Positions 27,356 to 30,412 of a stretch of DNA of 64,000 nucleotides are shown here, piece by piece (the first letter of the stretch is position 1; every line of letters starts with the position of its first letter). Both the position numbers and the translations under genes were made by a program. The notes beneath the pieces were generated by a model, which made no database searches, was not told where the DNA came from, and saw only the letters and a list, made by a program, of their open reading frames with translations. This DNA comes from an uncultured Rhodospirillales bacterium (GTDB taxonomy: Bacteria; Pseudomonadota; Alphaproteobacteria; Acetobacterales; Acetobacteraceae): assembly GCA_903844135.1 (NCBI GenBank), contig CAIMSN010000008.1, positions 1 to 64,000 on the forward strand. The letters are read 5' to 3'.

Positions 27356-28153
27356 CTAAAGCCAGCCGATCTCCAGCGCATTGCGATACAGCATATAGAG
27401 CGCGGTCAGGCACACCAGCACGCCGAGGAGCTTGCCGAGCACCGCCTTGCCGTCGCCGATCCGGCAGGCGAGCCTGGTGCCGAGCCAGCCGCCGATCACC
27501 GAACCTTCCAGGAACGTCGCCGCCACCTTCCAGTCCACCAGTCCGGACACGGCGTAGGTGCTCGCGGTGGTGAGCCCGAACGCGCCGACCGCCAGCAGCG
27601 ACGAACCGACCGCATACAGCATCGGCATTCCGGTGCTGAGGAGCAGGGCAGGGACGATCAGGAACCCGCCGCCGATACCGAAGAACCCCGAAAGCAGGCC
27701 GACCCCCAGTGCGGCGCCGGCGATTCCCGGCAGGGTGCGGCGCGTGCAGTAGCGCGTCCCGGCCGCGACGTCGCACGCCGCCAGCCCAGGCTTGCGCCGC
27801 AGCATGCGTGCGCCGACCACCAGCATCAGCGCGGCGAAGAGCACGAGCAGCTTGTTGCCGTCGACCATCTTGCCGACGAGCGAGCCGGCAAACGCGCCGG
27901 CCATGCCGACCGAGGCGAACAGGCAGGCCGATCGCCAGCGTACGTTGCCGGCGCGGAGATGACGGAGGAAGGTGAAGAAAGCGCTGCCGGAGACCGCCAC
28001 GGCGCCGGTGCCGATCGCCTGGTGCGGCGCCAGCCCGATGACATACAGCAGCAGCGGCGTCGCCATGATCGAACCGCCGCCGCCGACCAGCCCGAGCGTC
28101 AGCCCGACGAAACCGCCGCTCAGCACGGAGAGCGTGACCAGGCCGGGCGTCAC
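27356..28153 (-). CDS. TauE/SafE family anion permease
   Basis: This 265-residue membrane protein has about eight helices and the duplicated glycine motif of TauE/SafE exporters (FVGLTLGLVGGGGSIMATPLLLY and GLLSGFFGIGGGFLIVPALLL). Such proteins move sulfite, sulfonates or other organic anions. The track ORF includes an upstream out-of-family part; translation likely begins at the GTG at 28153, which has only a weak Shine-Dalgarno. The preceding DUF442 gene supports a sulfur-related role. Confidence 0.85.
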   Translation of the reverse strand: MTPGLVTLSVLSGGFVGLTLGLVGGGGSIMATPLLLYVIGLAPHQAIGTGAVAVSGSAFFTFLRHLRAGNVRWRSACLFASVGMAGAFAGSLVGKMVDGNKLLVLFAALMLVVGARMLRRKPGLAACDVAAGTRYCTRRTLPGIAGAALGVGLLSGFFGIGGGFLIVPALLLSTGMPMLYAVGSSLLAVGAFGLTTASTYAVSGLVDWKVAATFLEGSVIGGWLGTRLACRIGDGKAVLGKLLGVLVCLTALYMLYRNALEIGWL

Positions 28154-28181
28154 GCGCGTTCGTGTCCCGCGCCGCGGTGTT

Positions 28182-28610
28182 TCAATGCGGAAGCCGGGCG
28201 AGCCAGGCCAGCCCGAAGGACGGATCGAACCCCTGGGAGGCGATCCATGCCGCGGCTTCCTCGCGGGTCGCCGCGCCACGCAGGACGCGGGACAGCGCCC
28301 ACAGCGTCGCCGAGCGCAGTCCGGATGCGCAATGCGCATGAACCAGACCGGGCTCCGCCTCGACGGCCGCCGCGAACGCGTCGATCTCCGCGCGAGAGAG
28401 GGTCGGCAGCCGCACCGGGATGTGCCGGTAGGCGATCCCCGCCTGCGCCGCCAGCGCTGCGCCTTGCGACGCCGCCATCTGCCCCGGCGCCTCGCCATCC
28501 GGCCGGTCGTTGATCACCAGCCTGACGCCGCGTCCGGCCAGCGCCGCGAAATCCGCCGCCGCGAGCTGCCCCGAGATGGTGAGCCGGTCCGGAAAGGCAC
28601 TCGAATCCAT
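28182..28610 (-). CDS. DUF442/TIGR01244-type phosphatase-fold sulfurtransferase
   Basis: The 142-residue product begins with a typical DUF442 start (DRLTISGQLAAADFAALAGRGVRLVINDRPDGE) and contains the phosphatase-like loop HCASGLRSATLWA with the nucleophilic Cys. This family is found fused to, or next to, persulfide dioxygenase-like enzymes and TauE/SafE permeases, so it is probably part of sulfide or persulfide handling. The track start is a GTG three codons earlier; I chose the ATG. It is followed after 28 bases by the TauE/SafE gene. Confidence 0.83.
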   Translation of the reverse strand: MDSSAFPDRLTISGQLAAADFAALAGRGVRLVINDRPDGEAPGQMAASQGAALAAQAGIAYRHIPVRLPTLSRAEIDAFAAAVEAEPGLVHAHCASGLRSATLWALSRVLRGAATREEAAAWIASQGFDPSFGLAWLARLPH

Positions 28611-28681
28611 CGCACGCACCCCGATCCGCGGTTGAGCTCGCTTCCACCGTTATCCTCGAACCGGGCGCGCGGTGCCAGCGC

Positions 28682-28903
28682 CTAGCGGCGTCCGCCGGGC
28701 CTGGCGCGTCGGGCGCGATCGAACAGGATGCCCGCGGTCAGCAGATACACCGCGGCGCCTGCCAGGGTGATCGCCGACCAGATCGGGAACCCGACCGCCG
28801 CGCCCGGCGGCGCGTTGCGATAGGCGATCAGCTCCTGGCCGAGGATCAGCGCGTTGATCGCCACCACCACCAGCCCGATCCACAATCCTGTCGATGGTTT
28901 CAT
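28682..28903 (-). CDS. Small two-helix membrane protein
   Basis: The 73-residue product has two transmembrane helices (TGLWIGLVVVAINALILGQEL and WSAITLAGAAVYLLTAGILF) and a basic C-terminus (RARRARPGGRR). It is not in a family I can name. The ATG has GGGGAG 5 bases upstream and lies 21 bases after bciA, so it is likely co-transcribed with that gene and may be linked to it functionally. Confidence 0.72.
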   Translation of the reverse strand: MKPSTGLWIGLVVVAINALILGQELIAYRNAPPGAAVGFPIWSAITLAGAAVYLLTAGILFDRARRARPGGRR

Positions 28904-28924: not shown

Positions 28925-29896
28925 TCAGAACACGGCATGGTCGCGACGGTCGATCGCCGCCTCGCCGGCGACCAGCCGTGCATAGAACGCGAACAGCGTC
29001 TCGCTGCCGGTCGACGGCGTCGCGTCGGCGTCGTAGCGCCCGCGCGCGCCGTCCCAGACCAGCATCGACTCGGTGGCATAGTAGCGGCCGATCCGCGCCA
29101 GTTCCGCCTTGTCGGCCAGGCGCTGCGAGACCCGGCCGAGCCCGGCCAGCACCGCCACGATCGCATCGAGCATGCCGACCGGGACGCTGCGGAATCGCGC
29201 CGGCCGGCCCAGCAGTTCGAACAGACGCTCGCCCTGCTGACGCGGCGTGATCGCCGGGCCCGGACCGCCGATCGGCAGGATTCGGTTCCGCCGGTCCGGA
29301 TCGTCCAGACACGCGGCGAGATAGCGCCCGAGATCGTCGTCGCTGATCGGCTTGCAGGCGGTGAGGCTGCCGTCGCCGAACAGCAGGAACGGCTTGCCTC
29401 GCCGCAGCCGGTCGAGCTGCCCGGACAAGGATTTGAAATACGCGGTCGGCCTGACGATCGAATAGGTCAGGCCGGACTCGATCAGCGCCCGCTCGAACGC
29501 CAGCTTGGCGTGCTGGAACCCGAGCTTCGGTTTCTGCACGCAGATCGCCGACAGCAGCACCATCTGCGGCACGCCGACCGCCCGGGCCGCCTCGAGCACG
29601 GTGAGCGTGGCCTGATAATCGACCGCCCAGGCATCCTTCGGCGTGCCGCTGCGCGAGGCCAGGCACGACACCACCGCATCGAACCGCTCGCCGCGGAACC
29701 CGTCCTGCGCCACCGACCGCGGATCGGTCAGAACGCCGCGCCGCGACTCCGCGCCGGCCTCGTCCTGCGCCCCCGCGCGCCCGAAGCACACCACCGCGTG
29801 CCCGGCCAGGAGCAGCGCCCGCACCGTCGCGCGCCCGATCGTGCCGGTGCCGCCGAGGACCAGAATGCGTCGTGGTCGAGGGGAGGGGTGGTTCAT
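28925..29896 (-). CDS. bciA: Divinyl chlorophyllide a 8-vinyl-reductase, BciA type
   Basis: BciA reduces the C8 vinyl group of divinyl (proto)chlorophyllide with NADPH during (bacterio)chlorophyll synthesis. After a Rossmann start (LVLGGTGTIGRATVRALL), the sequence follows the BciA/plant DVR pattern block by block: KDAWAVDYQATL, LLSAICVQKPKLGFQ, YSIVRPTAYFKSLSGQ, GKPFLLFGDGSLTACKPIS, RILPIGGPGPAITPRQQGE and RIGRYYATESMLVW. These blocks set it apart from general NAD(P)H-binding SDRs. No other bch, puf or crt gene is in the window. The Shine-Dalgarno is poor, so the exact start is uncertain. Confidence 0.88.
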   Translation of the reverse strand: MNHPSPRPRRILVLGGTGTIGRATVRALLLAGHAVVCFGRAGAQDEAGAESRRGVLTDPRSVAQDGFRGERFDAVVSCLASRSGTPKDAWAVDYQATLTVLEAARAVGVPQMVLLSAICVQKPKLGFQHAKLAFERALIESGLTYSIVRPTAYFKSLSGQLDRLRRGKPFLLFGDGSLTACKPISDDDLGRYLAACLDDPDRRNRILPIGGPGPAITPRQQGERLFELLGRPARFRSVPVGMLDAIVAVLAGLGRVSQRLADKAELARIGRYYATESMLVWDGARGRYDADATPSTGSETLFAFYARLVAGEAAIDRRDHAVF

Positions 29897-29995: not shown

Positions 29996-30412
29996 CTAGT
30001 TCGGCTTCAGCGCTTCCCGGGCGATATCGATGAGGTCATGGCCGCCGAGTTTCGCATTCACGGCGATCAAGATGAGGAAAATGCTGTAGAGAAACGCGGA
30101 GAGGAACCCGATGACGAGGGGAATTCCCCATACCGCCCGCCAGCCTGGGCTCTCCGGTTCCGGAACCGCGAAATTGACCGCGAATTGGGTGAGGATCTGA
30201 GCCGATTCAGATGTGAAGTCTTCGAGTTCATTTTGGGTGAAGTTGGCACACGTCGCGCGTTGCGCGGGCGTTGCTGACGAGCCGTATTGTCCGTCGGCGC
30301 GATCGTATTTTCGGAGGACGAGAAGGCCGAGGGCGATGGTCTGTTCGAGGTTCTTGTATGGATCGGCAGCATAATAGAGGACGGAATCAACTTGGTTGCG
30401 CTCTCCAGCCAC
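29996..30412 (-). CDS. Unknown protein with C-terminal membrane helix
   Basis: I do not recognise a family. The 138-residue product starts at a GTG with GGAG 7 bases upstream, has a soluble N-terminal part (SVLYYAADPYKNLEQTIALGLLVLRKYDR) and one strong hydrophobic segment (WGIPLVIGFLSAFLYSIFLILIAVNA) near residue 105. It overlaps the preceding small gene by 26 bases, so the two look coupled, or could be one gene split by a frameshift. Codon use and GC content are lower than in the neighbours, which suggests acquisition. It lies between bciA and tRNA-Arg. Confidence 0.6.
   Translation of the reverse strand: MAGERNQVDSVLYYAADPYKNLEQTIALGLLVLRKYDRADGQYGSSATPAQRATCANFTQNELEDFTSESAQILTQFAVNFAVPEPESPGWRAVWGIPLVIGFLSAFLYSIFLILIAVNAKLGGHDLIDIAREALKPN

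What the first reader, a model, noticed from the sequence alone, without database searches (positions are those of the whole stretch)
28925..29896. BciA-type vinyl reductase: a hidden sign of phototrophy
The protein matches BciA/DVR blocks (KDAWAVDYQATL, LLSAICVQKP, IVRPTAYFKSLSGQ, GKPFLLFGDG, KPIS, ILPIGGPG, TPRQQGE) rather than a general SDR. This step is specific to (bacterio)chlorophyll synthesis. No other photosynthesis gene is in the window, so bciA stands outside any cluster and next to a two-helix protein that could be a partner. Either the organism is a phototroph or the gene is a relic or has a new role.
Basis: partly seen in the sequence, partly recalled or inferred. Interest (0 to 1): 0.68.

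Follow-up and report, generated by a model that had tools for sequence, protein, structure and literature searches.

The report
Ordinary BciA in a purple phototroph
The gene is a standard bacteriochlorophyll-making enzyme (the NADPH-type 8-vinyl reductase BciA) in a bacterium whose genome also holds a full-looking set of photosynthesis genes on another contig, so nothing is hidden or out of place, although its close phototrophic relatives lack this enzyme.

Summary
In detail: window 28925-29896 (-) encodes a 323-aa intact BciA ortholog, 63-74% identical over its full length to BciA from Methylobacterium, Cereibacter, Rhodovulum, Gemmatimonadota and others. The seven cited blocks are mostly BciA-specific. 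(1) The same genome has pufL, pufM, bchH/L/M/C/X/Y, acsF, puhA, puhE and crt genes on contig C70, so the organism is an ordinary purple-type phototroph; the gene needs no relic or new-role explanation. (2) A tree places it within BciA, apart from generic SDRs. No BciB is found, so BciA is the only dedicated 8-vinyl reductase. Lying outside the photosynthesis cluster is normal: 77 of 88 BciA loci show no cluster gene in their flanks. The neighbouring 73-aa two-helix protein is not a partner: homologs occur in congeners lacking bciA, and none accompanies bciA elsewhere. One mildly interesting point: of 150 same-family genomes, 49 have reaction-centre genes; 25 of these have a BciB-type protein, 6 have BciA, none both, and 18 neither, including two phototrophic congeners. 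Those 18 presumably rely on chlorophyllide oxidoreductase (BchXYZ). New member of a known kind; low interest.

The parts
28925..29896 (-). bciA: NADPH-type 8-vinyl reductase, 323 aa, intact
   Evidence: 63-74% identity over full length to 80 loci; nested in BciA tree; 127 of 323 positions at least 95% conserved in 89 BciA sequences
28682..28903 (-). 73-aa protein with two hydrophobic helices, 21 bp downstream of bciA; restricted to the genus as far as seen; possibly co-transcribed but not a BciA partner
   Evidence: no homolog beside other bciA genes
29996..30412 (-). 138-aa ORF upstream of bciA, no Pfam or NCBIfam match; lower GC (0.57)
   Evidence: no homolog in flanks of 80 bciA loci

Best explanation
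The gene encodes a normal, functional BciA. It uses NADPH to reduce the C8 vinyl group of divinyl (proto)chlorophyllide to ethyl during bacteriochlorophyll synthesis in an ordinary anoxygenic phototroph whose photosynthesis gene cluster lies elsewhere in the genome (contig C70). It is the only dedicated 8-vinyl reductase found in this genome; BchXYZ (COR) probably provides a second, back-up activity, as in Rhodobacter. Shown here: orthology, an intact ORF, the presence of the rest of the pathway's marker genes, and the absence of BciB. Inferred: enzymatic activity, substrate, and the back-up role of COR.
For: Full-length 63-74% identity to BciA of named phototrophs, including Cereibacter ovatus, Phaeovulum veldkampii and Rhodovulum marinum, and 72% to Rhodobacter sp. 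CZR27. Tree nested among these, away from generic SDRs. The genome has pufL and pufM, bchY at 621 bits over a cut-off of 425, bchL and a second BchL-like ATPase (bchX), acsF, bchH, bchM, puhA, puhE, bchC and crtD. No FrhB_FdhB_C (BciB) protein, and no second BciA. In the family, 6 of 7 BciA carriers also have reaction-centre genes. BciA function and the COR back-up are experimentally established in Rhodobacter (PMC4214422, PMC4331041, PMC4432870).
Against: The closest phototrophic congeners lack it, so it is not essential to the way of life in this genus. One same-family genome (G004, 90% complete) has BciA without a detected reaction centre. No activity was measured. No PpsR-type TGT-N12-ACA site lies near the gene.
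Confidence: 0.96

Rival explanations
1. A relic or repurposed BciA: the gene no longer serves bacteriochlorophyll synthesis, and COR does all C8-vinyl reduction, as it probably does in congeners that lack bciA.
For: Two phototrophic congeners (G051, G115) have pufLM but neither BciA nor BciB. Deleting bciA in R. sphaeroides leaves BChl a synthesis intact because COR reduces the vinyl group (PMC4214422).
Against: The ORF is intact, the positions conserved in at least 95% of BciA are kept, and GC3 is 0.90. The rest of the pathway is present.
Confidence: 0.03
2. A general SDR (NmrA or epimerase-like) that only resembles BciA.
For: Pfam finds only generic domains (NAD_binding_10, Epimerase, NmrA), NCBIfam has no model that passes, and solved-structure hits are generic SDRs.
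Against: 63-74% identity to proteins of named phototrophs, compared with about 30% to generic SDRs; the tree separates the two.
Confidence: 0.01
3. BciA works together with the adjacent 73-aa two-helix protein as a membrane-anchored unit.
For: Same strand, 21 bp apart.
Against: Homologs of the 73-aa protein occur in congeners G115 and G151, which have no BciA. None was found in the flanks of 80 other bciA loci or in the six other same-family BciA genomes. Known BciA needs no such partner: heterologous R. sphaeroides BciA alone complements a Synechocystis bciB mutant (PMC4214422).
Confidence: 0.02

Closest known systems
BciA (plant-type divinyl/8-vinyl reductase; Rhodobacter sphaeroides, Chlorobaculum tepidum, plant DVR)
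   Same: Full-length orthology, N-terminal nucleotide-binding GGTGTIG motif, BciA-specific blocks, phototrophic genome
   Different: Nothing of note; it is the only BciA among five genomes of its genus
BciB (ferredoxin-dependent 8-vinyl reductase)
   Same: Same reaction
   Different: Unrelated protein; absent from this genome, though a BciB-type protein is found in 25 of 49 phototrophs of the family
COR (BchXYZ) acting as third 8-vinyl reductase
   Same: bchY and a bchX-like gene are present on C70
   Different: Nitrogenase-like complex; probable sole route in relatives with neither BciA nor BciB

Membership tests
BciA 8-vinyl reductase | Full-length sequence orthology to BciA of known phototrophs | tested here: met
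   63-74% over about 312-323 residues to 80 loci
BciA 8-vinyl reductase | Groups with BciA, not with other SDRs, in a tree | tested here: met
   SH-aLRT 93 separates the 3 SDR outgroups; their branches are very long. Experimentally verified sequences themselves were not in the tree; Cereibacter ovatus and Rhodobacter sp. CZR27 stand in for R. sphaeroides
BciA 8-vinyl reductase | Nucleotide-binding motif and BciA blocks | tested here: met
   GGTGTIG at the N-terminus; block conservation
BciA 8-vinyl reductase | Occurs with (bacterio)chlorophyll synthesis genes | tested here: met
BciA 8-vinyl reductase | NADPH-dependent C8-vinyl reduction | not testable with these tools
   Needs an enzyme assay
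BciB | FrhB/FdhB C-terminal domain | tested here: not met
   The BciA protein has only SDR-type domains, and no FrhB_FdhB_C protein exists in the genome

The most novel reading that the evidence does not exclude
Within this genus, dedicated 8-vinyl reduction is dispensable: this species alone of the five genomes held has bciA, while phototrophic sister species have neither BciA nor BciB and live on COR alone. That would be a natural experiment on why three alternative 8-vinyl reductases coexist, whether bciA was gained here or lost elsewhere.
Probability: 0.6. Interest if true: 0.35.

Novelty: new member of a known kind. Interest (0 to 1): 0.16.

Why it matters
The gene itself only confirms that the organism makes bacteriochlorophyll. 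The family survey (25 BciB-type, 6 BciA, none with both, 18 with neither among 49 phototrophs) suggests that the three routes of 8-vinyl reduction replace one another within one family. That could be tested by pigment analysis.

Tried and rejected
Relic or new role: set aside because the genome has the pathway. General SDR: rejected by tree and identity. Two-helix partner: rejected by co-occurrence. PpsR-type sites (TGT-N12-ACA): six in the window, 3.8 expected, none near bciA. Horizontal gain of bciA in this species: suggested by the best identity (74% to Methylobacterium, 65-69% within the family), but the AU test does not reject grouping it with five same-family BciA (p 0.58), and the GC is native-like, so gain against loss is left open. 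Empty-site comparison in congeners: only the 73-aa gene aligned at the DNA level in the two regions compared, so no flank-to-flank empty site could be shown.

Full report
Observation. The ORF 28925..29896 (-) is real, intact and 323 aa long. Pfam and NCBIfam give only generic SDR domains because neither library returned a BciA model, and solved structures give only distant SDRs. A scan of 84,980 species genomes, however, returned 80 full-length relatives at 63-74% identity from Methylobacterium, Cereibacter, Rhodovulum, Phaeovulum, Rubrivivax-like MAGs, Gemmatimonadota, Bradyrhizobium and others. These groups include well-known phototrophs (established knowledge). Generic SDRs match them poorly. 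In a tree the protein lies among BciA and apart from three generic SDRs. The outgroup branches are very long, so only the separation should be read from it.

Phototrophy. The window is contig C8 of a 3.78-Mb assembly of an unnamed organism. Contig C70 (42.8 kb) carries pufL and pufM, bchY, bchL plus a second, BchX-like ATPase, acsF, and bchH, bchM, puhA, puhE, crtD and bchC. The organism is therefore a purple-type anoxygenic phototroph and BciA has an ordinary job. No FrhB_FdhB_C (BciB) protein is present and there is no second BciA. The window itself holds no other photosynthesis gene that the genome's own cluster proteins detect. The distance between bciA and the cluster is unknown because they lie on different contigs.

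Being outside the cluster. Only 11 of 88 BciA loci have a recognisable photosynthesis gene in the flanks held (up to 6 kb for most loci); where they do, it is mostly bchC or bchH in Burkholderiales. A lone bciA is the rule. Flanks vary in length and the queries were this genome's own cluster proteins, so 11 is a lower bound.

Mechanism. Work in Rhodobacter shows that BciA reduces the 8-vinyl group, preferentially of chlorophyllide, that BciB is an unrelated enzyme for the same step, and that COR (BchXYZ) of BChl a producers is a third 8-vinyl reductase that masks a bciA deletion (PMC4214422, PMC4331041, PMC4432870). By orthology the same is expected here. Activity was not tested.

Two-helix neighbour. 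The 73-aa gene lies 21 bp downstream of bciA on the same strand and has two hydrophobic stretches. Homologs occur in congeners G115 and G151, which have no BciA, and none lies beside the 80 other bciA genes or in the six other BciA-bearing genomes of the family. It may share a transcript but is not a conserved partner.

Distribution. In 150 genomes of the family, 49 have reaction-centre proteins over the cut-off. Of these, 25 have an FrhB_FdhB_C (BciB-type) protein and 6 have BciA; none has both, and 18 have neither. All 25 BciB-type proteins are in phototrophs. The lack of overlap has a chance probability of about 0.01, not corrected for relatedness. The BciB-type label rests on one domain and on this co-occurrence, not on a BciB tree. 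In the genus, only this genome of five has BciA, although G051 and G115 have pufLM. Best identity is to Methylobacterium (74%) rather than the family (65-69%), but the tree cannot reject grouping with five same-family proteins (p 0.58), so gain and loss remain open.

Verdict. The gene is an ordinary member of a known family; only the patchy use of BciA, BciB or neither among relatives is of some interest.

Noticed in passing
G000 contig C70 10168-11970 (L003:10168-11970, +); also L167:10311-12026 in congener G051: PuhE (photosynthetic complex assembly protein) is fused in one ORF to a CobW/COG0523 metal-chaperone GTPase with a histidine-rich loop. The same fusion is intact in a congener. One full-text search found no paper on it.
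   Followed up: partly
L150:7971-10043 (Agrobacterium plasmid) and L156:257-2231 (G004): A BciA ortholog next to an alpha/beta hydrolase is found on Agrobacterium plasmids and in G004 (74% and 70% identity between the two). The Agrobacterium plasmids carry no pufM or bchY and G004 no detected reaction centre; chromosomes of the Agrobacterium strains were not available. Relatives of the hydrolase lie near bciA in L019, L025, L036, L046, L063 and L079.
   Followed up: partly
same-family genomes G002, G006, G017, G022, G033, G037, G048, G051, G057, G073, G082, G086, G088, G093, G100, G106, G115, G147: Eighteen genomes with reaction-centre genes have neither BciA nor an FrhB_FdhB_C (BciB-type) protein.
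   Followed up: partly
27356-28619 (-): TauE/SafE exporter (27356-28498) and TIGR01244-type sulfur transferase (28182-28619) ORFs as listed overlap by about 300 bases in different frames; the TauE start is probably taken too far upstream (its domain match begins at residue 126).
   Followed up: no
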